From a virus, in the IMG/VR virus record IMGVR_UViG_3300008262_000113, positions 1 to 57,902 of that record: 57,902 nt of DNA; one strand, given 5' to 3'. The notes beneath the pieces are model-generated. The model searched no databases and was not told the DNA's origin. It saw only the letters and a list, made by a program, of their open reading frames with translations. The translations under genes and the position numbers were made by a program. This document shows positions 5,269-40,749 of the stretch, piece after piece (position 1 is the stretch's first letter; each line of letters begins with the position of its first letter).

Positions 5269-5705
5269 TGCTGGTTAATGTAACACATGATTCTCACTTA
5301 GCGTATTTAAAAGATGACCCTGTACGTCCGCACATACCCGTAGAGTTTAGGATTAGAAAACCCAATCAAGTTTGGTTATTAGAAGATGATTTTAGCGGTA
5401 GTGTACATGGCGTAATCTGTGTTGCATATACACACACTGTACCTACCACAGAACAAGAGTTAATGAACTTCTGCGACAACGATGGTGATATTGTTGTGTT
5501 TTATACAGTATGGAGTTATACCAAAGGTGCAGGTCGAGACATAGTATTTGGTGTTGCGAGACATATCAAACAAACTAGAAAAGTTAGTCGGTATGTAACA
5601 TTAAGCCCTAAGACAGAAATGGCTAGAAAGTTTCACTTAGCCAACGGAGCAATAGTTTTACAAGAAAACCCAGAAAGTGTTAATTACGAATATTTGGAGA
5701 TATAA
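5268..5705 (+). CDS. Hypothetical protein, possibly GNAT-like fold
   Basis: 145 residues, start sharing one base with the previous stop. Strand-rich with YVTLSPKTEMARKFHLANGA near residues 108-127, which resembles the acyl-CoA-binding helix and following turn of small acetyltransferase-like phage proteins. This resemblance is weak and no catalytic residue is certain. Confidence 0.4.
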   Translation: MLVNVTHDSHLAYLKDDPVRPHIPVEFRIRKPNQVWLLEDDFSGSVHGVICVAYTHTVPTTEQELMNFCDNDGDIVVFYTVWSYTKGAGRDIVFGVARHIKQTRKVSRYVTLSPKTEMARKFHLANGAIVLQENPESVNYEYLEI

Positions 5706-6178
5706 TGGAAGATACCAACGAGTATGAAGAATTTGCTAAACGCATGGAAGAACGTTTTCCAAAAATGTTCGAAGGCAGATATGGTGGCTTTGCTGTAGGT
5801 GCGGGTTGGTATCCTATTATCGAAGCATTGTGTGCTAACATTCAAAGTCACGCAGATTGGCGAAACGATCAACGAAAACGGCTGTTAGAAAATAACAAGT
5901 ATGTTCATCCAATACCCGAAGCAGTTCCGCAAGTAACTGTGGAACAGATTAAAGAAAAGTTTGGCGGACTACGCTTCTACTACCAAGGCGGCGACGACAC
6001 TATTGCAGGCATGGTACGTATGGCAGAAGCCTGGGCAGATGCAAGTTGCGAAGAGTGTGGTGCTCCTGGTACACAGCGTAATGGCGGATGGATTAGAACA
6101 TTGTGTGATCTGCATGAGAATGAACATCAAGAACGATTACGCAGTCAAGAAATGAAAATGTCAGGATTTGAAGAATGA
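5705..6178 (+). CDS. Conserved phage protein with zinc-finger-like Cys pairs
   Basis: 157 residues. Central VTVEQIKEKFGGLRFYY is followed by IAGMVRMAEAWAD, then CEECGAPG and IRTLCDLHE, giving a CxxC...CxxH set that could bind zinc. I recall this arrangement from many tailed phages, but without known function. Start shares one base with the previous stop. Confidence 0.55.
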   Translation: MEDTNEYEEFAKRMEERFPKMFEGRYGGFAVGAGWYPIIEALCANIQSHADWRNDQRKRLLENNKYVHPIPEAVPQVTVEQIKEKFGGLRFYYQGGDDTIAGMVRMAEAWADASCEECGAPGTQRNGGWIRTLCDLHENEHQERLRSQEMKMSGFEE

Positions 6179-8650: not shown

Positions 8651-8892
8651 TGACAGTTAAAAAAACATACGCAGATACTGTTGATCTGCACTGCACGGAT
8701 AAAAATGAAATAGTGCCAGCTGAAATCCTAGAATTTCGCCCAGGCATGCTTATTAGTGTAAGTATACAAAGAAAAATTAAAATGATACTTAAATTTAATC
8801 ATCGAGGCAATAACTATGTTGGCTCGATGGCAGGTCTTGAGTTTACTACTGCTGGCCCAAAAGAAACTATTACTTACGAAGGAAGAAGATAA
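8650..8892 (+). CDS. Small beta-rich hypothetical protein
   Basis: 80 residues with alternating hydrophobic strands ([30 protein letters not shown]). Shares single bases with both neighbours and directly precedes clpP. Function unknown. Confidence 0.45.
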
Positions 8893-9509
8893 TGCCACTA
8901 ATCCCAATGGTTGTTGAACAAGAGACTCGCGGCGAGCGTTCATATGATATTTACAGCCGCTTGCTCAAAGATCGAATTGTTATGCTCAACGGCCCTGTAG
9001 AAGATAATATGGCTAATGTAATTGTAGCACAGTTATTATTTTTAGAAGCAGAGAATCCAGACAAAGACATTAACCTATATATTAATTCGCCTGGCGGTGC
9101 AGTTACCGCAGGACTAGCTATCTACGACACAATGCAGTACATCAAATGTGATATTCGTACTATTGTCATGGGTCAGGCATGTTCAATGGGCTCGTTCCTA
9201 GCACAAGCAGGCACGGCAGGTAAGCGAGTAGTACTGCCTGAAAGCCGTACTATGATACATCGAGTTAGTTCAGGTACTCCTGGAACACGTGGTTCAGTTC
9301 ATGTACAAGAACTTCAATTTGAAGATGCTATTCGTTCAATGGAAGAAAGTAAAAAACTCAACAAGCGATTAACCGAGCTGTATGTCAAACACAACACCAA
9401 AGGCAAACAATACGATGAGCTTTTTGAAACAATGAAATTTGATACTTTCTTAAATGCACAAGAAGCGGTTGATTACGGTTTAGCAGATAAAGTTGTAGAG
9501 AAACGATAA
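8892..9509 (+). CDS. clpP: ClpP-like serine protease
   Basis: 205 residues, the usual ClpP length. N-terminal [20 protein letters not shown] is the classic ClpP start; nucleophile Ser98 sits in GQACSMGSF, His123 in MIHR, and Asp184 in [16 protein letters not shown] aligns with the catalytic Asp of E. coli ClpP, so the triad is complete. The handle loop after His ([11 protein letters not shown]) differs from the cellular QPLGG. No ClpX/ClpA-type ATPase is in this window, so it probably uses host partners or acts in phage-specific proteolysis. Start shares one base with the gene before. Confidence 0.92.
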
Positions 9510-10373: not shown

Positions 10374-10449
10374 TCCTCAGTAGCACAGCGGTAGTTGCAC
10401 TTGACTGTTAATCAAGGTGTCCGTGGTTCGATCCCACGCTGAGGAGCCA
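10374..10449 (+). tRNA. tRNA-Asn (GTT)
   Basis: Complete cloverleaf: acceptor TCCTCAG with CTGAGGA, anticodon arm CTTGA-CTGTTAA-TCAAG, T-arm with GGTTCGATCC, discriminator G, encoded CCA. First gene of the array. Confidence 0.92.
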
Positions 10450-11777: not shown

Positions 11778-11806
11778 TTGACAAGACAGTAAAAATTTGC
11801 TAAAAT
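11778..11806 (+). promoter_or_regulatory. Promoter of the giant ncRNA
   Basis: TTGACA (11778-11783), 17 bp, TAAAAT (11801-11806); predicted start near 11813, just before the first structured elements. Confidence 0.75.
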
Positions 11807-11812
11807 AGACAC

Positions 11813-13030
11813 ATGTTAAGAATTTAAGGGTGGTTTATCATCCTGTAGGCGGCTTGCCGTTTACAAAGAATAAGTGTGGCGACACACCCAAAGCTAGAAT
11901 GCCTACATACTAGCGCCAGCAATGGTTCACGTAAACAAGCCTGCTCACTACCGCGAGGTAGCGTTCACTCATAAGACCGGTGGATGTAACAGCAAAGCTG
12001 ATGTATGGGAAAGAACATTGTTCGACGTGCCGCAAGGAACACGGGGCAGTGAAAAGTAACAGGTGGTGCTGACTTCCATATAAAACCAATCAGTTAGTTG
12101 GTATGAGAAAGGGTAGTGTACTTGTTCGAGGGGTCGCACCTAAGAGCTCGTATACAATGTAAATGGTTAGTGGGCTGTAGTAATACAGTACACCGATCGT
12201 GAAACATCACTGAGTAGCTCGCGAGGCAAAAGGTATGTGGTGAGTTGTATTTTGTATTCCAAAAGAGTATGAAGCAACTGAGGCAGCTCATCGCGGTAGG
12301 TTAATGTAGATCAATGGTAGATCATCTTCCTGTTAAGAAGAATGCTGTCGGTTCAAATCCGATCATTTAAACAAAAATGCAAAGACTGCCTCGGTCGTAT
12401 GTGAAAAGTATCTAATACTTGAGTGGTAACACAATCAAGTCTAATGAAGCTCGCAAGGTAACATTAGTTTATACTGGAAGTTTCGTAGGGTGTTAGCGCA
12501 CTCGAATAGCTCGCAAGGTTAACGGAATAGATGGTGTAGAATAGCATATGGCGTCAAGTCTACTGCCTGACTTAAAACGGCGATACTGTAAGCAGACTAG
12601 GTTACATAGTGATATGGACTTAGTGGATGTCTAGAGAACGTATACTCGCAAGGTGTACGGTAATGCTAGAGGTGCTTATGGTTAAGATGTAATCTCAGTC
12701 TTAACACTATTCTAAAACACATTACCACAAACAGCAATTAGAGCTGGTTGTATAACAATGTCGTAGTGTGTTTCAGAATAGCAGAAATGTTATGCACATG
12801 ACAATTCGTTGTCAGCAAGAGAATGTCACGCTATAAAGGTTTCTTCGAAGGACTGATATAGTAGAAGGGGACGGGTTCAACTCCCGGCTGATCGGAAGAT
12901 CGGCGCAGATTGGTTGCTAACTGGACTAGTATCCCAAGTGACGTACCGAGTCCCGCTCGAGCTTGTTAATTCGGGTGAATGGTGCTTATAACGATGGAAG
13001 TACTAATGAGTTGTCAGCTGTATAATATTT
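11813..13030 (+). ncRNA. Giant ornate ncRNA, GOLLD/ROOL-like candidate
   Basis: About 1.2 kb with its own promoter, no convincing gene, and dense structure. Seen directly: a pseudoknot in which hairpin GCTAG/CTAGC (11893-11914) has a loop whose GCCTACA pairs with TGTAGGC at 11844-11850; GGGTG/CACCC; GTTTAC/GTAAAC; CTACC-GCGA-GGTAG; ACTTGA-GTG-GTAA-CAC-TCAAGT; a 15-position stem 12707-12721/12767-12781 with one mismatch; a UUCG hairpin 12800-12813; GCTGATC-GGAA-GATCGGC (12887-12904); and four copies of a bulged GNRA module. A tRNA-Asn-like domain is embedded. Size, pseudoknots, tRNA neighbours and phage context fit the GOLLD or ROOL classes known from lake metagenomes and phages; the class assignment is inference. 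The 3' end is probably made by RNase P at tRNA-Met. Confidence 0.65.
12301..12373 (+). tRNA. tRNA-Asn-like domain (GTT) inside the ncRNA
   Basis: D-arm GATCAATGGTAGATC, anticodon arm TCTTC-CTGTTAA-GAAGA, T-arm GTCGGTTCAAATCCGAT. The acceptor is imperfect (TTAATG with CATTTAA needs a bulge) and the 3' end reads ACA rather than CCA. A perfect 7-bp helix GAGGCAG (12280-12286)/CTGCCTC (12386-12392) encloses it, so it looks like a domain of the large RNA rather than an ordinary tRNA gene. Confidence 0.6.
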
Positions 13031-13286: not shown

Positions 13287-13859
13287 ATGGAACTTACACT
13301 TCGTAAAGCAAGCGCACTTCAGAACAGCATCAACGATACTGTTAAAAGTATCACGTTGACACAAACAATTCGCATCAACGAGTTCCAAGAGGCTGAAGCT
13401 GAAATATCTAAGGCTGCTCAGGAATTTAACAGCAATGTGTTTCGTCGTGTAGCACTGACAGATGTGCTGTACGAAATTCGCAAGGCAGTGAGCCGTGCAA
13501 ATGCACAAGCAGGTGTCAATGAAAAGTTGGCAGACTTGGCTCAGCTTGAGAAAGATATCCAATTCTTTTCAGGTCTAACAGCTCATGACGTTCGTGAGTC
13601 TGCTCAAGTCATTGAGGGCAAGTTGAATAAAATTCGGAACCGCAAAGAAGACACTCGTGCAAGTTTGTACGGCCACAGTGATGAAGTTAGTACTTCTGTA
13701 TTGACTCGCAAAGATGTAGATACATTCCGTGCAAAAGTAGCAGAAGCCAAAAAGGCCAAGCAGAAATTGCAGGACGAGCTCTTAGAGCTTAATGTTCGTA
13801 CAACTATTGCCCTAAGTGGTAAGGCTGTGGACATTCTTAAGCACGAAGAATTGATCTAA
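13287..13859 (+). CDS. Hypothetical coiled-coil protein
   Basis: 190 residues, nearly all helical with heptad-like spacing: about 30-50, 75-115 (KLADLAQLEKDIQFF) and 135-175 (VDTFRAKVAEAKKAKQKLQDEL). No signal peptide or catalytic motif. AAAGGA before ATG and its own promoter. It is one of three clear protein genes inside the first RNA unit. Role unknown. Confidence 0.65.
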   Translation: MELTLRKASALQNSINDTVKSITLTQTIRINEFQEAEAEISKAAQEFNSNVFRRVALTDVLYEIRKAVSRANAQAGVNEKLADLAQLEKDIQFFSGLTAHDVRESAQVIEGKLNKIRNRKEDTRASLYGHSDEVSTSVLTRKDVDTFRAKVAEAKKAKQKLQDELLELNVRTTIALSGKAVDILKHEELI

Positions 13860-14505: not shown

Positions 14506-15180
14506 ATGTATGCAACAGGTGTTTTTCGTTCTGCATCGCAGATTAATAGTGCAATGGGCCGTGTTTACGGACATATGGCACTGGCAGTTATCACATCAAT
14601 GATTGTAAGTTATCTTGTAGGATCAAATACAACGCTGATGGAATTTTTCTTTACAGGCGCAATGAAATGGCTTGTAATCTTTGCGCCGCTTGTAGCCATT
14701 CTTGGCGTTAGCTTTGCAATGGACAAAATGAGTAAGAGTGCGTTACAGCTATTTTTACATGGATTTGCCGCATTAATGGGTCTAAGTTTTGCTACAATCT
14801 TTGTAGTATATAACATGGGAAGCATTGTAAGCGCATTCATGGGAGCTGCCGTTCTATTTGCTACAATGAGTGGCTATGGCTACTTCACTAAACGTAATTT
14901 GGACGGAGTTGGCCAATTTATGTTCATTGGGTTGATTGCGATTGTTATTGCAAGTATAATCAATATTTTTATTGGTAGTACAGTTTTTCAAATGGTCATT
15001 AGTGCTATCGGAATTATTGTGTTCTTAGGCTTAACAGCATACGACACACAAAAGATTCGTGAGATGGTTAGTTACGACAATGATGGTAAGGCAGAAATTG
15101 CAGGCGCTCTTAGCTTGTACTTAGACTTTATCAACTTGTTCTTAATGTTACTACAACTATTTGGTGGTCGTAAGGACTAA
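14506..15180 (+). CDS. Bax inhibitor-1 / YccA family membrane protein
   Basis: 224 residues with about seven hydrophobic segments, starting at residue 24 after a polar N terminus. The family signature is present near the C terminus: GLTAYDTQKI followed by LYLDFINLFLMLLQLFG. BI-1/YccA proteins are inner-membrane channels or regulators; E. coli YccA inhibits FtsH. A phage copy could protect phage membrane proteins from FtsH or modulate host stress (inference). AAAGGAG lies before ATG. It is embedded between structured RNA and tRNA-Val. Confidence 0.85.
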   Translation: MYATGVFRSASQINSAMGRVYGHMALAVITSMIVSYLVGSNTTLMEFFFTGAMKWLVIFAPLVAILGVSFAMDKMSKSALQLFLHGFAALMGLSFATIFVVYNMGSIVSAFMGAAVLFATMSGYGYFTKRNLDGVGQFMFIGLIAIVIASIINIFIGSTVFQMVISAIGIIVFLGLTAYDTQKIREMVSYDNDGKAEIAGALSLYLDFINLFLMLLQLFGGRKD

Positions 15181-16867: not shown

Positions 16868-16982
16868 GACCAACCACTTGTAGCGTTAACGGTAGCGCAC
16901 TTGACTCTTAATCAGGTGAAATGGTTATCACAGCAGACTTTTAATCTGCCAGTTCCGGGTTCGAGTCCCGGTGCTCCTACCA
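16868..16982 (+). pseudogene. Hybrid tRNA-Lys, two anticodon arms, one 3' end
   Basis: A first tRNA starts with a D-arm (GCGTTAACGGTAGCGC) and anticodon arm CTTGA-CTCTTAA-TCAGG (CTT), then runs directly into the D-arm GGTGAAATGGTTATC and anticodon arm GCAGA-CTTTTAA-TCTGC (TTT) of a second tRNA, with T-arm CCGGGTTCGAGTCCCGG and TGCTCCTACCA. The 3' half of the first and the 5' acceptor of the second are missing. Best read as a deletion between tandem tRNA-Lys genes; the only Lys anticodons seen in the window. Confidence 0.6.
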
Positions 16983-17588: not shown

Positions 17589-17665
17589 TGGAGCGACCGG
17601 GGGATTCGAACCTCCGCTTCTTGGGTTACAGTCCCAAGTGTAGTGACCACTCTACTACGAGTCGC
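17589..17665 (-). tRNA. tRNA on the minus strand, probably Thr (TGT) with unusual loop
   Basis: The only minus-strand tRNA. On its own strand: acceptor GCGACTC with (C)GGTCGC, D-arm GTAG...CTAC, anticodon arm TTGGG-ACTGTAA-CCCAA, T-arm GGAGGTTCGAATCCCCC, discriminator T, encoded CCA. Loop numbering gives anticodon TGT, but position 33 is C instead of the near-universal T; read one base on, the anticodon would be GTA (Tyr). It ends 8 nt from the minus-strand SGNH gene. Confidence 0.75.
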
Positions 17666-31662: not shown

Positions 31663-34600
31663 ATGGCAAGAAAAGAGATTAACATTGGCGTAGAAGGCAA
31701 TGACGGCACAGGTGATAGTATCCGTGAGTCGTTTAGAAAGACCAACGAAAACTTTAATGAACTATATGCTATTTTTGGAGCAGGCGGTACTATTAGATTT
31801 ACTACGCTAAGTGATACTCCTGACGGCTATGAACCTAATACTGTATTATTTGTTGATTCAAACGCTGACGGAATTAAATTTAGAGCCTTAGCTTCTAATT
31901 CAGCTGCTGATCCTACTGCCGACGATAGTATTTTAATTAGCTATGATACTCCTAATAAAATTGTACTGTCAACATCTTTCAGAGCATTATCACAAGATTT
32001 ATCACCGCAATTAGGCGGTCCTTTAGATGGAAGAAATAAAGCTATTGCTCGTATAGCAATATCACAAGAAGCAGTTGACGAGTTTAACGCAGAACAACCT
32101 AATCCTCAAATAACCATTGACGATCTAGTTATTACCAAAGGTTACGCTGATAATAGATATATTGCGGGTGCCTTACCAATTAGAATTCCAGACGAGCCTG
32201 CTAATGCAAGTGATTATACGTTGGTTATTGAATCTTATTCAAATGGTAATATTGTAGTTACTGGTCACGGATTTGACAATACCATTAACGGAACTCCTTA
32301 CAAATTTCGAGCAGAAGATACTGATCCATCCGGAATAGTAACTGATACAACTTATTATTTACGGTATGCTACAGCAAATCAATTAAGTGTACATGCTACC
32401 AGAGCCGATGCTACTGTTCTAAGTCAGTCCGATGCCAATACAAATAAGATATTCATTACGGGTACTATTGGTGTAGATGATGAGCATATTTTTGTTGATG
32501 CTGCATACGACTCAAACTTACAAGGATTTTATCTAGCTAATCAAGCAATACCTAGAAAATCAGTAGTTCGCCGTCAGGGTGATAAGATGACTGGACCGTT
32601 GATACTGCATGACAGCCCAGGCGAACTTGCAGGGCTAGCCAGCAGCGATGAAGATTTACAAGCAGCAACTAAATTTTATGTTGACAATACCAGTTATGCT
32701 AGTATCAGTAACTTATATGTAACTACGCAGGGCGACGATAGAATGACAGGAGTGCCAGCTGGTAAAGCAGGAACTTCTTGGAGTTATGCGTATAGAACTA
32801 TTAACGCAGCAGCTCGGCGAGCTGAAGAAATTATTCAAGCATCTGAAGCTGAACCCGGTCCGTACATGCAGACTATTACTCGAGACGGCGGCACAACACC
32901 AGCTGAAGTACTTGAAGCTGCCATTGTTACTCCTGTGTTTAATCAAGCAAGGTATTTGATCGAACAAAATAGAGCGTTTGTTGTTAGTGAAGTTACAGGT
33001 TACTTACAATTTAAATATCCTAATTTTGATTATAATATTGAAACTTGCGAACGTGATCTAGGTTTGATTTTAGATTCTATTGCATTTGATATTAATAGAG
33101 GACCCGCAGTTGATGCTACAGCTAACTACCTAACAAGATTGGCTGCTGAAAGATATTATGCTAATGCAAGTGCTATTGTAGCAATTACAAGACAATTAAC
33201 AGAAACTGTTGATGCTATTAATACTGCAAGAGATATGATTGCAGCAGTTCTGTTAAATCGTCCATATTTACAAAGACCAATATCAAATATTACACAAGCA
33301 GCTATAGCAAGAGTTACTACTAGCGTTTCACATAATCTAGTAAGCGGTAATCAGGTGATTATTAAAAATGTATCTGGTATGACACAGGTCAACGAGAACG
33401 TTTATTATGTAAGAGTAGTAAGCCCAAATCAATTTGAGTTATTCACTGATCGAACACTATTAACCGCAGTAAATTCATTATCTTTTACAGCATATAGTTC
33501 GGGCGGTATAATTGGTATTAGATATCAAGACGACGAAGGTCAATTTTTTGATATTGGTAATGATGCTGACGCAACATCAAGAACTGCTATCAGTGATAAG
33601 TTTAATTTAGTTACCAACATTATCCAGAACGGTATTAATGCTGGTGCATTAGTAGTATATGGTAGTACATACAAAGTTGTTGTTAATAACGGCGGTCTTA
33701 GTGCAATTGACCAAGGTGTAGGCAATAACGTAGACTTATTACCAGGAAAAATACTAGTTGGTAAAATATCAGGCGCACAAGGACGTATTGTTAGCTTAAC
33801 AACTAATGATCCAGCCGAAGGCGGCCAAGATAAAATTCTTGTGCATTTAATAAAGCCTATTGATTTTATACCAGGTGAAGATCTAGAGTTTGATAATTTT
33901 GTTAAACGCAAACAGATTACGATTTTTATTGAATCAGGTATTTATGAAGAAGACTACCCTATTAAAGTTGCTGCCAACGTTTCAGTTGTGGGTGATGAAT
34001 TTCGTCGCGTAATTATAAGACCAAATCGTCGAGTATCTCAATCACCTTGGGCAAGTACTTACTTCTACAGAGATTTAGAATTTGATGGTATACCGCTGGT
34101 TACAGGAGGTAATAGATTCTATAACCAAGTAGGCGAAATACAAGGTAGATTTGGATATCATTACTTAGAAAATCCAACCAAAGTTAAAAACACAGGCACG
34201 TCTGTTGTAAACCCAGGAAAATTTTCAACAGCCTCAAACATTCTTCAAGAAAATAAAAAGTTTATACAAGAAGAAGTAATTGCGTATATCAATCAAAACT
34301 TCCAAGATTTGCTCTACGACAAAATTCAGTTTGCTAGCGACTTTGGAGAAATACTTGACGGCATTACCTATGACATAGTATTAGGTACAAATTACAATCA
34401 AGTACTAGAAGGATTAAAATTTTCTCGTGCAGGCAGTATATACAGAGATTCATATCTAAGAGAACTTTGGGTAGATGCATTAATTAGAGCTAGAAATCTT
34501 GTTTCAGCATTACCAGCAGTTATTAGTAGTGCAACTGCAACTACTAGATCAAACACAGCGTTTAATGAAATAATTGATATTATTCAAAACGGTGTTGTTA

Positions 34601-37600
34601 GTACTGAGACTGCGGCAAATGCATTAACATTTAGTCCTATTGACAGTACCTTACAAGATCAAATTGATGCAAAGAATCAATTGCAGGCAAATAGAAACTT
34701 CATTGCTGCTGAGATTACTGCATACATAGCTGTAAACTTTCCTAGGTTAGAATACAATTCAACTAAGTGTGCAAGGGATGTTAAGTATATAGTTGATGCA
34801 TTAAGCTATGATGTGATGTATGGAGGTAACTTTGCTACTAGACAATCTGCAATTAGTTACTTTGTTAATGCAGTAAGTCAGTTAGGATTAAATCAAAGAT
34901 CTTTTACTGTTGATGCGTACGAGCATTTGTCAGGAGTAGTAGCAGACATAGTTCGTGGTATTGCTATAGTACCAACTTCAGGAAATGTATTGTCACAGAC
35001 TGGCGTAGGATCTAACCCAGCTAGTACAACAGAATCAACAATAGTAACTAATTTAGTTAATATTATTAAAAATCAAATTAATAATAATAATTTGCTAACA
35101 TTGCCTAGCGCCGTGTATCCTTCATTAACAAGTGCAAACGTAACCTTACTTGATGTAAAAACTGCAATCAACGGCAGTACTAATACTATTGTTTCTGATG
35201 TAATCAGTACACTTGATGGTATTGCTGTATACTCATACAATCAGGCAAAGTGTCGTCGAGACGTTGGATTAATCGTTAATGCACTAGCAGATGATTTAAA
35301 GCTAGGCGGTGATGAGTTTTCTACAGAAGTACAAGGAGAATATTTTAGAAGCTATATTCAAAAGTATAATAACGACGGATTTGGTGGACAAGAAAATGTT
35401 ACCAAAGGCGCTATTAGATATATTTCAGAAATTGCTGCTAGACTATTTGACGGTGCATACGATGCCGGCGCTATCCAACAAAATCCTCTAGCTGTTAATT
35501 ATGTTGCTCCTGACTTTGAATATGGAGTAGCAGAAAATGATACAGATAATATAATAAGCAATTTAATTGAAAAGATTGTTTTTGTTTTTGATCCTAGATA
35601 TAATCCTCCAAAACGAAATGACGAAGTAGATGTGTTTTTAATGAACGATGCTACAATTTTACGTAACATGACAGTTCAGGGGCACGGCGGATTTATGTGT
35701 ACTCTTGATCCAGACGGTCAAATATTAACTAAGTCACCTTACATACAGACAGGATCTTCATTCTCACAAACATTAAATCGCAAACGTTTTGCTGGCGGTA
35801 TGTTTGTTGATGCATATGTAGGTAACTTACCAGCTGAGATAACTGGAAAAATTAATGCGTTTACTCTTACAATTCGCAGCGAAGAAACTCAAGGTCTAAG
35901 AATTCGACCACCCCAGTTACCATGTCCATTCTACATAGAAGGCAGACGCTATCAAGTTAATGCAATTTCTGATTATGACCAAGCACAAGGTACTGCAACT
36001 ATCTATCTAGATGCTACATCTAACGCAGGTGTTGGATATCTAGAAAGTCAATTTGAAGAAGACACTGGACAAGTAGAACGTCCGTTATATTTACAAACTG
36101 CTGGTAATCGTTCGATGCTGGGCAATGACTTTACACAGATTAATGACCTTGGTTACGGCTTAGTAACTAACAATGGCGCATTCTCTGAAATGGTGTCAAT
36201 GTTTACCTATTATTGTCAAGCAGCCTACTATGCTAAGAACGGATCAGAAATTCGTTCACTAAACGGTTCTAACGGTTATGGTAACTTTGGTCTTGTGTCA
36301 GAAGGCGCAGATCCTAACGAAATTCCTGATCAGGTTACATTAGAATTTCCTATGACTGCTCCAGCTAGAACGCTTCGATTCCCTCAAGGAGTTGACAATC
36401 TCGGTGCACCTACTAATTTTACAAACGTAGAAGCAGCAAATAGCATAGTAGTAACAGATGTACCATATGCTCCACTAACTGGTTCTGTGGTTACAATTAA
36501 TCACGGCGGTACAGTAGGAACCTTACAGTATAACGTTTCTGTTGTTAGGTATTTAGGAGACGGTAATCAATCTGGAGACGTAGTTCTAACAGGTATACAA
36601 TCTGTTAGTTCTGTAGCTGGTAATGCTTCTAGAACTCCTGGAACATATACTGGCAAAGTAGGTACTGGTGGTACACCTACTGTACAAGCAACATATACTA
36701 TAGTAATAGTGCCTGGCGGAGCAACTACAGTAACCGTTGAAGGCTGTGGTGAAGGATATGCTATTGGTAATACTATTACTATTGCTAATACACAGTTTGG
36801 AGGTACAGGAACTGCAATTACATTTACGGTTGCATCAATTTACGGCAACGACGGTGTAACAGCATTACCTGCTAGTGTATATAATAATAAGGTATATAGA
36901 TTACAAATAAGCGGACAACCTAACGGTACTAACGGAGATTTCTACTCAGCAATTAAGGCTGATGTAGCCAACGGAGTACTAGTTGAATATCGTAACGGCG
37001 GAACTCATATATTTGACAGCGTTAAGGATACTTCAAGATTAGTTACTAGACCAAGTACAGCTATTAACTTTGACGAGAGTGACAATGTTACTTACAGAAG
37101 TATTGGTTTCAGTGCATTTAATTCACTAGGTTTACCTTTAGACAGTAATTCTATTCAGACAACTTTTGAAGTTAGTTACGATCATATTGAGTTGTACGTT
37201 GAAGCAGCGAACGTTACCAGTACAACTGGTGGAACTATTGGTAATACACAAATTAAAATTAATCCAGATAAAGAAGGATTCGGATTACTTGCAGATGAAC
37301 TTGCAAGAATTACTAGAGACGTTGCTGGTAGATTGCCTGGAGCTCCAGGCTATAGTGGTGGTATGGTGTTTACATGGGCAGGTAGAACACATCAAATTAT
37401 AAATTATACCCCAGTTGATACAGACGAAGCTATACTTACTATAAGCAGTACAAACATACATAATCTTGCAGGCGCAGGCACAGGCATTGCTGAAGCGTTT
37501 ACTACCGATAAAGTATTACGTGCTGGTTTGCCTGTAGGCAGTACTGCTGAGATAACTATTGCTATTTCATTGTGCCGCGCTACAGGTCACGATTTTACAC

Positions 37601-40600
37601 AAATTGGTACTGGTGGATTTAATACATCTAACTATCCTAATGTAATTTTAGGTGATCCATTAGGCTCTCTTGCACCTGCTTATGTAGATTCTCCTAATGC
37701 CACATCAGGACAAGTTTACGAAAAACGAAAAGGTCGTGTATTTTGGATGAGTACTGACCAATTTGGATTCTTCCGAGTTGGTAAGTTCTTTGAAGTTGAT
37801 CAAGGCCAGGGTAGTATTAAGTTCTCAGGTGACATTGGTATTACTGGTGCAACAGCATTAGGATTTAAGAAAGGTGTTACTATTGATGAATTCTCCATTG
37901 ACGATACAATGGCAGATGAGTCAGATACAAAAGTACCTGTTGAAAAGGCTATCGTTAGTTACATTAACAGACGATTAGGCAGAGATAGAAATGACACTAA
38001 CATATCTAACAAAATTGGTCCAGGATTCTTACCGCTAAGTGGTACCGCAGAAATGCAAGGAAACTTGCTGATGGGTAACCAAAAAATTACTAACTTAGGT
38101 GATCCAGGAGTTGATCCTACCGCGGCTGTTAATAAAGCCTACGTTGACGATGCGGTATCTAGTTTTGATACCTTAGAAGATCAACGAAACATTAGCTTCA
38201 ACAGAATTGAATCTGGTGATATTTTAGTTGGTACTGGTTTGAAAAAGATATTTGTAACACCTCCAAGCGGTGGTGTTTTTGTTGCTGGTGATACTATTAC
38301 AGATATTTCTGCAAGTAAATCTGGAACAGTAGTTGATGTACAAGAAGTTACAGACGAAATTTTAGGTTCTGCGCCAGGGTACGATCTAACTATAATTACA
38401 TACCTACCAGTAACTAATTCTTTTAACCTAGGTGAAGACGTTGTTAAGGGTGCTATTTCAGCTAACATAGTAGACGGTCCTATTGATGAAGTTGCTAATG
38501 CAAGAGAATCAACCAACAGCGTTATTAATATAACTGTATCAAGAACAGCGGCAGTATATCAAGACGGTTTAACTGTTCCAATCGCACAACTTAATCTTCA
38601 AATAGAAAATGATTCAATAGTTAATGCTGACATTAATGCTAATGCAAGTATTCAGCAAAGTAAACTATTAATGGAAAGAGCAAGACCATTATCAGCTAGT
38701 ACTGGTTTATATGGTGTGAACAATGCAGTTGGACAAACTGACAGAGGTTTATCAGCATACGATGCTAAAAACTTTACAGAAGAGCTGCAAGTAACATTGG
38801 CAAATTCTGTCTCTGCTAATGCTGGAGATATATTATACCAAGGAACTTCAAAAGGTGTAGTAGTAAACACGATTGTTAATAACACTACTGTAATAATTAA
38901 AACTTCGGACACTTGGGCTACTAGTCCAACTGTATTAACCAAAGCAATATTCACTAACGGTATAGAACAAACTCCTACTACATTAACTGGGGTCAATGTA
39001 ACAGCCGTTAATCGTAGTGCATATATAGGTTTAAAAGAAAGAAGTATTGGACTTGATAAACACGAACCAATTTCAACTGATACTGTATTGGGAAGATTTA
39101 CTCCTGGAACAGGAGCAGTTGAACTAGTACCATTTGATACCATTGTTGATCAAGGCTTCGCTGTTCAGGATAAAGATTTTACAAACAGTGAAATTACTCA
39201 ACTAACAGGTCAGCGACTTGTGTTTACTAGTGAACTAAGCGTAGCAGATGGCGCTTCTGTAACACAAGCAGGTAGCGGTGCAACTGGTACTGTACAAGGA
39301 CAAACATTTAGTGAAACATCATTTATTGTTGTAAACATTACTGGTGCGTTCAACAACAGTGGCATTGTAACTGTTGGCGGAGTAGCAGTAGGAATTCCTA
39401 CTCCGGCATCAATAAGTCTTGCTGGTAAAGCAATGGTACAGATAGCCGACGGCATTTATGGAACTACTAGTATATCAACAGGTTCATCTAACAATAGTAT
39501 TGTAAGAAGAACTGGTGATGGTAAAATACAAGCTGAAGCATTTATTATTGGCGGTACGCCAAGTCAAGAAATACTAAGTCAAAGTGGCGGTGTATTATCA
39601 TTTAAAACTCCTGTGCAAGGCGTTATATTAACAGCCGCAGGCGGTAGTGGCGGTGGAAGTCCTACATATCCAGTTGTTCAAATGCCGGGTTCATTAAACG
39701 TTGGAGTTGAACTGTTTAGTGGATTAGTTAACACCACACAAGGAACTGCACAATCTAACATTGCTGGACTAACTGGAAAAGGCTTTGTAAGTGCTCCGTG
39801 GATGTACAGTAACTTTATCCAAGCATTAGATAATAAAGGAACAGCAAACACTACAGGCATTTCTCTTGGTGCTACATCTGGATTTACAAGTTCTGCACTC
39901 AGCACACTAGTATTGGTTGCAAACGGTTCAGAAGCTATCAAAGTTAACAGTACAGAGTCTCAGTTCTTTGGTAATGTAAAAGTTTCCAGTGGAGGCCTAG
40001 ATAGATTTGTTATTACAGCATCTAGTGGAAACACTGCTGTTGGAGGCACTCTAGGTGTTGGTGGAAACTTTGCAGTAGCTACTACTAAATTTACTGTAGC
40101 AAGTGCTAGTGGTGATACAGCAATTGCAGGTAATCTAAGTGTTACAGGCACCTTGGGTATAACTAGTAACACAACATTAACAGGAAATCTAACTGTTAAT
40201 GGTAACACTATTATTGGTGATGCTAATACTGATACTGTGACTTTTACTGCTAGGGCTGCAAGTGATCTTGTACCAAGTACTAATAATGCAAACAATCTAG
40301 GAAGCGGTTTATTAAAATGGAATACTGTATATGCTACTACATTTGACGGTACTGCATTAACTGCTCGTTATGCTGACTTAGCTGAAAACTATCAAGCAGA
40401 TGCTGCATACGAACCAGGCACTGTGCTGATATTTGGCGGTGATGCTGAAGTTACTATAACTACCATTAAAGACGATCATAGAGTAGCAGGTATTGTTTCT
40501 ACAAATCCAGCATATCTAATGAACAGCAATCTACAAGGAGCCAATGTTGTTTCAGTGGCACTGCAAGGCCGAGTACCATGCAAAGTGTTAGGTAAGGTAA

Positions 40601-40749
40601 GAAAAGGTGACTTGTTAGTTTCTAGTGCAATTCCTGGATATGCTATGGTTGGACAGACACCAGCAGTTGGTACTGTAATAGGTAAGGCTCTTGAAAATAA
40701 AGACAGTGAAGGTAAAGGTATTATTGAAGCTGTAGTAGGAAGAGTATAA
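31663..40749 (+). CDS. Giant tail fiber / virion surface protein
   Basis: 3028 residues, the largest gene here. An N-terminal module with NIGVEGNDGTGDSIRESF and NENFNELY is shared with the gene at 42047. Helical repeats with the pattern RxFxxxEvxxYi...C.RD..lI.D follow at about 426-510, 858-930, 1003-1075 and, partly, from 1189. Then comes a beta-helix-like region (NDATILRNMTVQGHGGFM near 1325), many Gly/Thr/Asn-rich beta repeats, and a C-terminal domain from about 2900 (RYADLAENYQAD...VALQGRVPCKV...KGDLLVSS), typical of fiber tips in aquatic T4-like phages. Probably contacts the host. Late promoter upstream, GGAG before ATG. Confidence 0.85.
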   Translation: MARKEINIGVEGNDGTGDSIRESFRKTNENFNELYAIFGAGGTIRFTTLSDTPDGYEPNTVLFVDSNADGIKFRALASNSAADPTADDSILISYDTPNKIVLSTSFRALSQDLSPQLGGPLDGRNKAIARIAISQEAVDEFNAEQPNPQITIDDLVITKGYADNRYIAGALPIRIPDEPANASDYTLVIESYSNGNIVVTGHGFDNTINGTPYKFRAEDTDPSGIVTDTTYYLRYATANQLSVHATRADATVLSQSDANTNKIFITGTIGVDDEHIFVDAAYDSNLQGFYLANQAIPRKSVVRRQGDKMTGPLILHDSPGELAGLASSDEDLQAATKFYVDNTSYASISNLYVTTQGDDRMTGVPAGKAGTSWSYAYRTINAAARRAEEIIQASEAEPGPYMQTITRDGGTTPAEVLEAAIVTPVFNQARYLIEQNRAFVVSEVTGYLQFKYPNFDYNIETCERDLGLILDSIAFDINRGPAVDATANYLTRLAAERYYANASAIVAITRQLTETVDAINTARDMIAAVLLNRPYLQRPISNITQAAIARVTTSVSHNLVSGNQVIIKNVSGMTQVNENVYYVRVVSPNQFELFTDRTLLTAVNSLSFTAYSSGGIIGIRYQDDEGQFFDIGNDADATSRTAISDKFNLVTNIIQNGINAGALVVYGSTYKVVVNNGGLSAIDQGVGNNVDLLPGKILVGKISGAQGRIVSLTTNDPAEGGQDKILVHLIKPIDFIPGEDLEFDNFVKRKQITIFIESGIYEEDYPIKVAANVSVVGDEFRRVIIRPNRRVSQSPWASTYFYRDLEFDGIPLVTGGNRFYNQVGEIQGRFGYHYLENPTKVKNTGTSVVNPGKFSTASNILQENKKFIQEEVIAYINQNFQDLLYDKIQFASDFGEILDGITYDIVLGTNYNQVLEGLKFSRAGSIYRDSYLRELWVDALIRARNLVSALPAVISSATATTRSNTAFNEIIDIIQNGVVSTETAANALTFSPIDSTLQDQIDAKNQLQANRNFIAAEITAYIAVNFPRLEYNSTKCARDVKYIVDALSYDVMYGGNFATRQSAISYFVNAVSQLGLNQRSFTVDAYEHLSGVVADIVRGIAIVPTSGNVLSQTGVGSNPASTTESTIVTNLVNIIKNQINNNNLLTLPSAVYPSLTSANVTLLDVKTAINGSTNTIVSDVISTLDGIAVYSYNQAKCRRDVGLIVNALADDLKLGGDEFSTEVQGEYFRSYIQKYNNDGFGGQENVTKGAIRYISEIAARLFDGAYDAGAIQQNPLAVNYVAPDFEYGVAENDTDNIISNLIEKIVFVFDPRYNPPKRNDEVDVFLMNDATILRNMTVQGHGGFMCTLDPDGQILTKSPYIQTGSSFSQTLNRKRFAGGMFVDAYVGNLPAEITGKINAFTLTIRSEETQGLRIRPPQLPCPFYIEGRRYQVNAISDYDQAQGTATIYLDATSNAGVGYLESQFEEDTGQVERPLYLQTAGNRSMLGNDFTQINDLGYGLVTNNGAFSEMVSMFTYYCQAAYYAKNGSEIRSLNGSNGYGNFGLVSEGADPNEIPDQVTLEFPMTAPARTLRFPQGVDNLGAPTNFTNVEAANSIVVTDVPYAPLTGSVVTINHGGTVGTLQYNVSVVRYLGDGNQSGDVVLTGIQSVSSVAGNASRTPGTYTGKVGTGGTPTVQATYTIVIVPGGATTVTVEGCGEGYAIGNTITIANTQFGGTGTAITFTVASIYGNDGVTALPASVYNNKVYRLQISGQPNGTNGDFYSAIKADVANGVLVEYRNGGTHIFDSVKDTSRLVTRPSTAINFDESDNVTYRSIGFSAFNSLGLPLDSNSIQTTFEVSYDHIELYVEAANVTSTTGGTIGNTQIKINPDKEGFGLLADELARITRDVAGRLPGAPGYSGGMVFTWAGRTHQIINYTPVDTDEAILTISSTNIHNLAGAGTGIAEAFTTDKVLRAGLPVGSTAEITIAISLCRATGHDFTQIGTGGFNTSNYPNVILGDPLGSLAPAYVDSPNATSGQVYEKRKGRVFWMSTDQFGFFRVGKFFEVDQGQGSIKFSGDIGITGATALGFKKGVTIDEFSIDDTMADESDTKVPVEKAIVSYINRRLGRDRNDTNISNKIGPGFLPLSGTAEMQGNLLMGNQKITNLGDPGVDPTAAVNKAYVDDAVSSFDTLEDQRNISFNRIESGDILVGTGLKKIFVTPPSGGVFVAGDTITDISASKSGTVVDVQEVTDEILGSAPGYDLTIITYLPVTNSFNLGEDVVKGAISANIVDGPIDEVANARESTNSVINITVSRTAAVYQDGLTVPIAQLNLQIENDSIVNADINANASIQQSKLLMERARPLSASTGLYGVNNAVGQTDRGLSAYDAKNFTEELQVTLANSVSANAGDILYQGTSKGVVVNTIVNNTTVIIKTSDTWATSPTVLTKAIFTNGIEQTPTTLTGVNVTAVNRSAYIGLKERSIGLDKHEPISTDTVLGRFTPGTGAVELVPFDTIVDQGFAVQDKDFTNSEITQLTGQRLVFTSELSVADGASVTQAGSGATGTVQGQTFSETSFIVVNITGAFNNSGIVTVGGVAVGIPTPASISLAGKAMVQIADGIYGTTSISTGSSNNSIVRRTGDGKIQAEAFIIGGTPSQEILSQSGGVLSFKTPVQGVILTAAGGSGGGSPTYPVVQMPGSLNVGVELFSGLVNTTQGTAQSNIAGLTGKGFVSAPWMYSNFIQALDNKGTANTTGISLGATSGFTSSALSTLVLVANGSEAIKVNSTESQFFGNVKVSSGGLDRFVITASSGNTAVGGTLGVGGNFAVATTKFTVASASGDTAIAGNLSVTGTLGITSNTTLTGNLTVNGNTIIGDANTDTVTFTARAASDLVPSTNNANNLGSGLLKWNTVYATTFDGTALTARYADLAENYQADAAYEPGTVLIFGGDAEVTITTIKDDHRVAGIVSTNPAYLMNSNLQGANVVSVALQGRVPCKVLGKVRKGDLLVSSAIPGYAMVGQTPAVGTVIGKALENKDSEGKGIIEAVVGRV

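What the first reader, a model, noticed from the sequence alone, without database searches (positions are those of the whole stretch)
11813..13030. A 1.2 kb phage-encoded ornate RNA, GOLLD/ROOL-like
Directly visible: own consensus promoter, no convincing gene, at least one clean pseudoknot, several GNRA- or UUCG-capped hairpins, a 15-position stem with one mismatch, and an embedded tRNA domain. GOLLD and ROOL RNAs are known as giant RNAs near phage tRNA genes, and GOLLD was first seen in lake metagenomes. I infer membership or a related new class. This is the most unusual object in the window.
Basis: partly seen in the sequence, partly recalled or inferred. Interest (0 to 1): 0.85.

Follow-up and report, generated by a model that had tools for sequence, protein, structure and literature searches.

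The report
GOLLD RNA plus undescribed self-pairing RNA
This stretch of a giant uncultivated phage encodes two back-to-back RNAs that make no protein: a new example of the known cage-forming GOLLD RNA with a tRNA look-alike built in, and a small undescribed RNA, found in over 200 phage contigs, whose loop sequences evolve as if they stick to copies of the same RNA.

Summary
(1) 11813-12781 is a GOLLD RNA. Rfam's model matches end to end at 201 bits (cut-off 150), and a 5' domain outside that model is supported by covariation (41 of 118 predicted pairs have compensated changes). A consensus promoter sits exactly upstream. The 'embedded tRNA' is a tRNA-like domain: in 15 such GOLLD domains the outer acceptor pairs are near random and none encodes CCA, against 325 of 347 neighbouring array tRNAs. 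(2) 12786-13029 is a separate structured RNA, here called E2. It has no Rfam match and no blastn homologue in 50,697 phage records, yet a covariance model confirms it in more than 200 viral contigs, usually 2-4 nt after a tRNA CCA inside tRNA arrays. 28 of 49 pairs covary. One loop carries a hexamer that evolves from palindrome to palindrome; in held-out sequences 38 of 39 are palindromes, four of them kinds not seen in training. Pairing between two copies of the RNA explains this best, so E2 is predicted to form homo-oligomers through kissing loops, as GOLLD and OLE do. Expression, oligomerisation and function are untested.

The parts
11778..11806 (+). Sigma-70-type promoter of GOLLD, TTGACA-17-TAAAAT
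   Evidence: 11 of 12 consensus matches; predicted start coincides with the start of homology at 11813. In the shuffled region a mean of 3.5 promoter-like sites is found, so the match alone is weak.
11813..12236 (+). GOLLD 5' domain (cap domain by analogy with env-38 residues 1-420)
   Evidence: 118-pair consensus fold in 9 sequences, 41 pairs with compensated changes
12237..12701 (+). GOLLD conserved 3' domain (Rfam RF02032 model positions 1-416)
   Evidence: 201 bits, cut-off 150
12300..12371 (+). tRNA-like domain in the GOLLD linker, anticodon GUU at 12332-12334, degenerate acceptor stem, no CCA
   Evidence: 57.4-bit tRNA match; acceptor statistics
12707..12781 (+). Terminal stem of GOLLD, 12707-12721 with 12767-12781, one A.C mismatch, enclosing a variable hairpin
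   Evidence: Conserved in most GOLLD relatives
12786..13029 (+). E2, a second structured RNA; model core 12801-13014; long closing helix P1 12786-12810 with 13005-13029
   Evidence: Covariance model R1 218 bits; 28 of 49 pairs covary in 55 sequences; z = -3.8
12825..12942 (+). E2 long-range helix P2, GUCAC 12825-12829 with GUGAC 12938-12942
   Evidence: 99.3% of cells paired, little variation
12844..12849 (+). E2 palindromic hexaloop UUCGAA (proposed second self-pairing loop)
   Evidence: Nearly invariant; variants UGGCCA, UCUAGA, GUCGAC are palindromes, three others are not
12872..12886 (+). E2 hairpin CGGG-UUCAACU-CCCG with a T-loop like that of tRNA
   Evidence: Closing pair varies CG/UA/GC/AU with compensation
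12952..12975 (+). E2 hairpin P8, CCCG 12952-12955 with CGGG 12972-12975; loop begins with palindrome CUCGAG at 12956-12961
   Evidence: Palindrome preserved through 10 distinct hexamers
12982..13003 (+). E2 hairpin P9, GUGCUU 12982-12987 with AAGUAC 12998-13003
   Evidence: Inner five pairs 100% paired, three with changes on both sides; sixth pair and a short pseudoknot from the loop suggested

Best explanation
The stretch encodes two adjacent non-coding RNAs inside the tRNA array of a large phage. The first, 11813-12781, is a GOLLD RNA; by homology it should fold into a 5' cap domain and a 3' ring domain and assemble into a hollow RNA-only multimer. Its linker, which points into the cage in the solved GOLLD, carries a tRNA-like domain that keeps its anticodon and T arms but has lost the outer acceptor stem and CCA, so it is a built-in part of the RNA and not a tRNA waiting to be released. 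The second, E2 (12786-13029), is a separate and apparently undescribed RNA of about 215-245 nt. E2 pairs with other copies of itself through a palindromic hexamer in its P8 loop, and perhaps through a second palindromic hexaloop (UUCGAA); two self-complementary contacts per molecule would build closed or extended homo-oligomers. Shown: the GOLLD match, covariation in both RNAs, the degenerate acceptor, and palindrome-preserving evolution. Inferred: transcription, excision by tRNA processing, oligomerisation, and a role as RNA scaffold or sequestering compartment during infection.
For: GOLLD: 201 bits over the full model; 5' domain with 41 of 118 pairs compensated; in 17 of 49 relative contigs. 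tRNA-like linker: 0 of 15 encode CCA against 325 of 347 array tRNAs, outer acceptor pairs 40-53% against 91-99%. E2: 28 of 49 pairs covary, score 0.341 against at most 0.056 when slid; confirmed in more than 200 contigs; G.U cells 197 against A.C 30, so the + strand RNA is what is constrained. Self-pairing: 53 of 55 hexamers palindromic in register and the other two shifted by one, against a mean of 16.5 and maximum of 27 in 2000 shuffles; held-out 38 of 39, with four new palindromes. Tight spacing to flanking tRNAs.
Against: No expression or structural data. The second palindromic loop is nearly invariant and three of its rare variants are not palindromes. One held-out P8 loop breaks the palindrome (L452). 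E2 is known only from metagenomic contigs, apart from two short MAG contigs. Loci were collected with patterns in the conserved core, which biases sampling towards similar members. GOLLD multimerisation of this member is inferred from the family only.
Confidence: 0.72

Rival explanations
1. 11813-13030 works as one composite RNA: an extended GOLLD in which E2 is a 3' accessory domain.
For: In the window only about 4 nt separate the GOLLD terminal stem from E2; in the distant phage L076 E2 also follows GOLLD closely. No strong intrinsic terminator was found between them.
Against: In other relatives E2 lies 1.5 kb or more away from GOLLD, between tRNAs, and occurs in large contigs without GOLLD, such as a 278 kb one. 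The GOLLD of the same phage lacks the E2 hexamer in six of six cases.
Confidence: 0.12
2. E2 is a monomeric functional RNA (ribozyme, riboswitch-like sensor or tRNA mimic), and the P8 palindrome serves something else, for example a dimeric protein or a palindromic DNA site.
For: Unpaired core stretches such as AGCAAGNGAA are almost invariant, as in an active site or binding pocket; a T-loop hairpin like that of tRNA is present in nearly all.
Against: The hexamer changes sequence freely while staying self-complementary; a protein or DNA site would be expected to keep a consensus. G.U in helices including the palindrome points to RNA pairing.
Confidence: 0.2
3. The domain at 12300-12371 is a working tRNA-Asn that is cut out of GOLLD.
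For: Good cloverleaf score, 57.4 bits, and a normal anticodon arm.
Against: Outer acceptor pairs are near chance and none of 15 such domains encodes CCA. The array holds a normal tRNA-Asn(GUU) at 10374-10449. A pseudo-tRNA inside a mycobacterial GOLLD was not detectably expressed on its own (PMC6582537).
Confidence: 0.07
4. The GOLLD tRNA-like domain is a decoy that offers anticodon arms, here Asn or Lys type, to host nucleases that cut anticodons, or that sequesters tRNA-binding proteins inside the cage.
For: Anticodon stem 91% and T arm 100% paired while the acceptor decays; anticodons NUU in all close relatives. Nucleases cutting tRNA-Lys anticodons are known host defences (own knowledge).
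Against: More distant GOLLDs carry other or unclear anticodons; many GOLLDs have no tRNA-like domain at all. No direct evidence.
Confidence: 0.2

Closest known systems
GOLLD RNA (Rfam RF02032; env-38 structure 9MEE, PMC12286853)
   Same: Full-length match to the conserved 3' domain, a 5' domain of the same length, phage tRNA-array setting, variable linker that can hold a tRNA.
   Different: The linker tRNA is shown here to be acceptor-degenerate; a conserved terminal stem and the adjacent E2 RNA are not part of the described family. Cage formation not tested.
ROOL RNA
   Same: Large phage RNA near tRNA arrays that forms an RNA cage (PMC12286853).
   Different: No match: apart from tRNAs, GOLLD was the only family reaching E<=1 on this stretch.
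OLE bridge B3 and GOLLD bridge B8 (symmetric kissing loops, PMC12286853)
   Same: Loop sequence switches between self-complementary versions, taken there as evidence of contacts between copies of the same RNA; E2's P8 hexamer behaves the same way.
   Different: E2 is a small RNA with no detectable sequence match to either; its contact is predicted, not solved.
HIV-1 dimerisation initiation site (own knowledge)
   Same: Six-nt palindromic kissing loop; two of its natural loop hexamers, GCGCGC and GUGCAC, also appear among E2 loops.
   Different: Unrelated RNA; the resemblance is in the pairing principle only.
Pseudo-tRNA in mycobacterial GOLLD (PMC6582537)
   Same: tRNA-shaped domain inside GOLLD that does not behave as an expressed tRNA.
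   Different: Here the defect is quantified across 15 domains and located in the outer acceptor stem and CCA.

Membership tests
GOLLD RNA | Match to the Rfam model above the curated cut-off | tested here: met
   201 bits against 150, model 1-416
GOLLD RNA | Less conserved structured 5' region ahead of the conserved 3' region, total over 800 nt | tested here: met
   11813-12236 with 41 compensated pairs; 889 nt to 12701
GOLLD RNA | Phage or prophage location near tRNA genes | tested here: met
   IMG/VR contig with phage genes and 26 tRNAs
GOLLD RNA | Variable linker at the position that is disordered inside the cage | tested here: met
   tRNA-like domain at 12300-12371 falls in the model's variable stretch (for the structure)
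GOLLD RNA | Assembles into a 14-chain cage | not testable with these tools
   Needs in-vitro transcript and cryo-EM or mass photometry
GOLLD RNA | Expression rises during lysis | not testable with these tools
   No transcriptome available
ROOL RNA | Match to a ROOL model | tested here: not met
   Search of all 4227 Rfam families at E<=1 returned only GOLLD and tRNA
tRNA (domain 12300-12371) | D, anticodon and T arms | tested here: met
   57.4 bits; T arm 100%, anticodon stem 91% paired over 17 linker domains
tRNA (domain 12300-12371) | Seven-pair acceptor stem and CCA end | tested here: not met
   Pairs 1 and 3 broken in the window, no CCA; 0 of 15 with CCA
Any Rfam family (E2, 12786-13029) | Match of E2 to a described RNA family | tested here: not met
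   None in the window at E<=1 or in 17 further loci at gathering scores
Homo-oligomeric RNA with symmetric kissing loop (E2) | Loop stays self-complementary while its sequence changes | tested here: met
   53 of 55 in register in training, 38 of 39 held out
Homo-oligomeric RNA with symmetric kissing loop (E2) | Oligomer observed in solution | not testable with these tools
   Needs mass photometry or native gel

The most novel reading that the evidence does not exclude
E2 is a new class of natural RNA-only assembly: a phage RNA of about 215-245 nt, released from tRNA arrays by tRNA processing, that closes into a ring or cage or polymerises through two palindromic kissing loops. It would be much smaller than GOLLD and ROOL and widespread in uncultivated large phages.
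Probability: 0.5. Interest if true: 0.88.

Novelty: new variant of a known kind. Interest (0 to 1): 0.7.

Why it matters
GOLLD and ROOL are natural RNA cages of unknown purpose. This locus places beside one of them a second, small, independently conserved RNA whose covariation points to self-assembly. At about 215-245 nt it is far easier to transcribe, mutate and image than GOLLD, so whether phages use RNA-only assemblies becomes testable with one compensatory-mutation experiment. The tRNA-like linker result also sharpens the idea that GOLLD carries tRNAs: in the examples examined, the domain could not be charged in the normal way, which shifts the question from tRNA supply to tRNA mimicry or sequestration.

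Tried and rejected
ROOL membership: no match. A single 1.2 kb RNA: homologues show two separable units. E2 as a known family such as tmRNA, RNase P RNA, intron or riboswitch: no Rfam match in the window or in 17 further loci; ARAGORN lists no tmRNA. E2 in cultured phages: blastn with six E2 versions against 50,697 records gave nothing or only short weak matches, the last to tRNA genes; the model found none in six large phage records, where an empty answer is weak evidence. E2 in bacterial genomes: 28 pattern hits, of which only two full-length strong ones, both on short MAG contigs (L306, L312). E2 hexamer pairing with GOLLD: the same phage's GOLLD lacks the hexamer in six of six cases. The first palindrome scans were mis-anchored or failed and were redone (replaced by 45, 72, 98). 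A G.U against A.C count made with a shifted structure string (end) was wrong and was replaced. A tRNA scan with a faulty parser was replaced. Literature searches for an earlier description of E2 found none; most subscription journals are not in that library.

Full report
What was given. The window is a 57.9 kb IMG/VR virus contig with 26 tRNA predictions and phage genes: clamp loader, endolysin, thymidylate synthase, virion proteins. One virion protein is distantly related (29-38% identity) to those of jumbo phages such as Agrobacterium phage Atu_ph07, Sinorhizobium phage Phosso and Escherichia phage 121Q.

GOLLD. Rfam's GOLLD model matches 12237-12701 over its whole length at 201 bits, cut-off 150. 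The model covers only the conserved 3' region. I fetched contigs encoding the neighbouring protein (13287-13856; 49 loci); 17 of them carry GOLLD above cut-off. Outside identical contigs, DNA homology spans 11813-12724 at 77-92% identity, starting where the promoter (TTGACA, 17 nt, TAAAAT, 11778-11806) predicts transcription to start. The 5' domain 11813-12236 has a 118-pair consensus fold in 9 sequences, 41 pairs with compensated changes. Its length and position match the 5' cap domain of env-38 GOLLD, residues 1-420 (PMC12286853). The whole unit folds better than shuffled sequence (z -4.5, 20 shuffles). A stem just downstream, CUAUUCUAAAACACA with UGUGUUUCAGAAUAG (12707-12721 and 12767-12781, one A.C mismatch), is kept in sequence in most relatives while the part it encloses varies.

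The tRNA inside GOLLD. In the solved GOLLD a disordered linker (497-538) points into the empty cage, and the authors note that tRNAs are sometimes found in the linker (PMC12286853). In Mycobacterium a pseudo-tRNA inside GOLLD was not detectably expressed (PMC6582537). Here the linker holds 12300-12371, called tRNA-Asn(GUU). All aligned relatives have such a domain, with anticodon GUU, UUU or CUU. I compared 15 embedded domains with 347 other tRNAs of the same loci. None of the 15 encodes CCA; 325 of 347 array tRNAs do. Acceptor pairs 1-3 form in 53%, 40% and 47% of embedded domains (chance with G-U is about 38%) against 91%, 99% and 98% in array tRNAs (a few embedded starts are off by one, so these percentages are rough). 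One further, more distant domain (L058) does end in CCA with most acceptor pairs formed, so the defect is not universal in GOLLD. The T arm is 100% and the anticodon stem 91% paired in 17 linker domains. The domain here is therefore kept as a tRNA-shaped part of GOLLD and not as a supply of tRNA. If this GOLLD forms the same cage (not tested), many anticodon arms would sit inside it.

The second RNA, E2. Homology to GOLLD stops near 12724. A separate block, from 12810 onward, is conserved in relatives 1.5 kb or more away from their GOLLD. Patterns from it found 119 stretches in IMG/VR (capped), then 90 and 81 (the last overlapping the first). A covariance model built from 55 sequences (A1, R1) confirmed 99 of 99, 85 of 88 and 38 of 38 loci scanned, more than 200 contigs. 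The window scores 218 bits (it is one of the training sequences). No record searched held more than one copy. In 67 loci E2 is in the same direction as the tRNAs, most often 2-4 nt after the CCA of one tRNA and 4-8 nt before the next, with no fixed tRNA identity. This fits release by tRNA processing (inference). In the window E2 directly follows the GOLLD terminal stem and ends 4 nt before tRNA-Met; in the distant phage L076 it also follows GOLLD closely. Of the 17 GOLLD-bearing relatives 15 also carry E2, but E2 also occurs in large contigs without GOLLD.

E2 structure. P1 closes the molecule; P2 (GUCAC/GUGAC) closes a core with P3, a T-loop hairpin, a GGAA-capped hairpin and others; P8 and P9 follow, with a short pseudoknot from the P9 loop suggested by covariation. 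Over 49 pairs 92.9% of cells pair; 28 pairs have changes on both sides; the covariation score is 0.341 against 0.134 shuffled and at most 0.056 when slid. G.U cells (197) far exceed A.C cells (30), so the constraint is on the + strand RNA.

Self-pairing. The P8 loop begins with a hexamer. In the 55 training sequences 53 are exact palindromes in register and the other two are palindromes shifted by one; six kinds occur (GCCGGC, UCCGGA, CUCGAG, CCCGGG, ACCGGU, GUCGAC). Re-pairing the halves at random gives a mean of 16.5 and a maximum of 27 in 2000 trials. The palindrome's own pair has the second-strongest covariation signal in the molecule, and its score is 0.609 against at most 0.106 slid. As a held-out test I used 123 later matches: 42 unique loops, three with another 3' module; 38 of the other 39 have a palindrome at that site (31 in the exact register, 7 one base on), including four kinds not seen before (CCUAGG, GUGCAC, CAGCUG, GCGCGC). 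A hexamer palindrome cannot fold on itself for lack of a loop, and a different partner RNA would not force the loop to stay self-complementary. The same argument was used for OLE B3 and GOLLD B8 (PMC12286853). A second loop, UUCGAA, is nearly invariant; of its rare variants some are palindromes (UGGCCA, UCUAGA, GUCGAC) and three are not, so that contact is only suggested. Six GOLLDs of the same phages lack the E2 hexamer, so E2-GOLLD pairing is not supported.

Novelty. E2 matches no Rfam family in the window or in 17 further loci and no cultured phage by blastn or, in six records, by model. Literature searches in open papers found no description; subscription journals are mostly missing, so an earlier description cannot be excluded. 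The GOLLD is a new member of a known family. E2 appears to be a new RNA family that most likely works like known self-assembling RNAs.

Limits. No RNA has been observed. Oligomer size, the second contact, processing and function are inferences. The GOLLD cage is inferred from homology. Relatives are mostly fragments, so absence of either RNA in a contig says little.

Noticed in passing
L188, L192, L203 and other loci with E2 'type B'; L223, L387, L404: E2 occurs with at least two other 3' modules. Type B has a CAGG/CCUG hairpin whose loop holds CGGCCG, again a palindrome; the third kind contains GCUAGC. The core looks like a platform on which 3' modules were exchanged.
   Followed up: partly
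L338 (Sinorhizobium phage Phosso, record 33533-34001): A cultured 469 kb jumbo phage carries GOLLD at 186.6 bits; ARAGORN finds no tRNA around it. It would suit laboratory tests of GOLLD.
   Followed up: partly
L076 1980-2690 (357 kb phage contig): GOLLD and E2 lie in tandem as in the window, although both RNAs are divergent, which hints at an old association of the long-P1 form of E2 with the GOLLD 3' end.
   Followed up: partly
L146 and L147, about 5690-5810: Truncated E2: the 5' part runs directly into a tRNA gene, which looks like decay by recombination inside the tRNA array.
   Followed up: no
window 31663-40749: A single open reading frame of 3028 codons, not examined.
   Followed up: no
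window 16915-16971 and 17593-17664: A partial tRNA match not called by ARAGORN, and a weak tRNA-Thr on the opposite strand at the end of the array.
   Followed up: no
window 8892-9509 and 14506-15180: ORFs on either side of the tRNA region that look by eye like a ClpP-type protease and a Bax-inhibitor-like membrane protein; not checked against any library.
   Followed up: no
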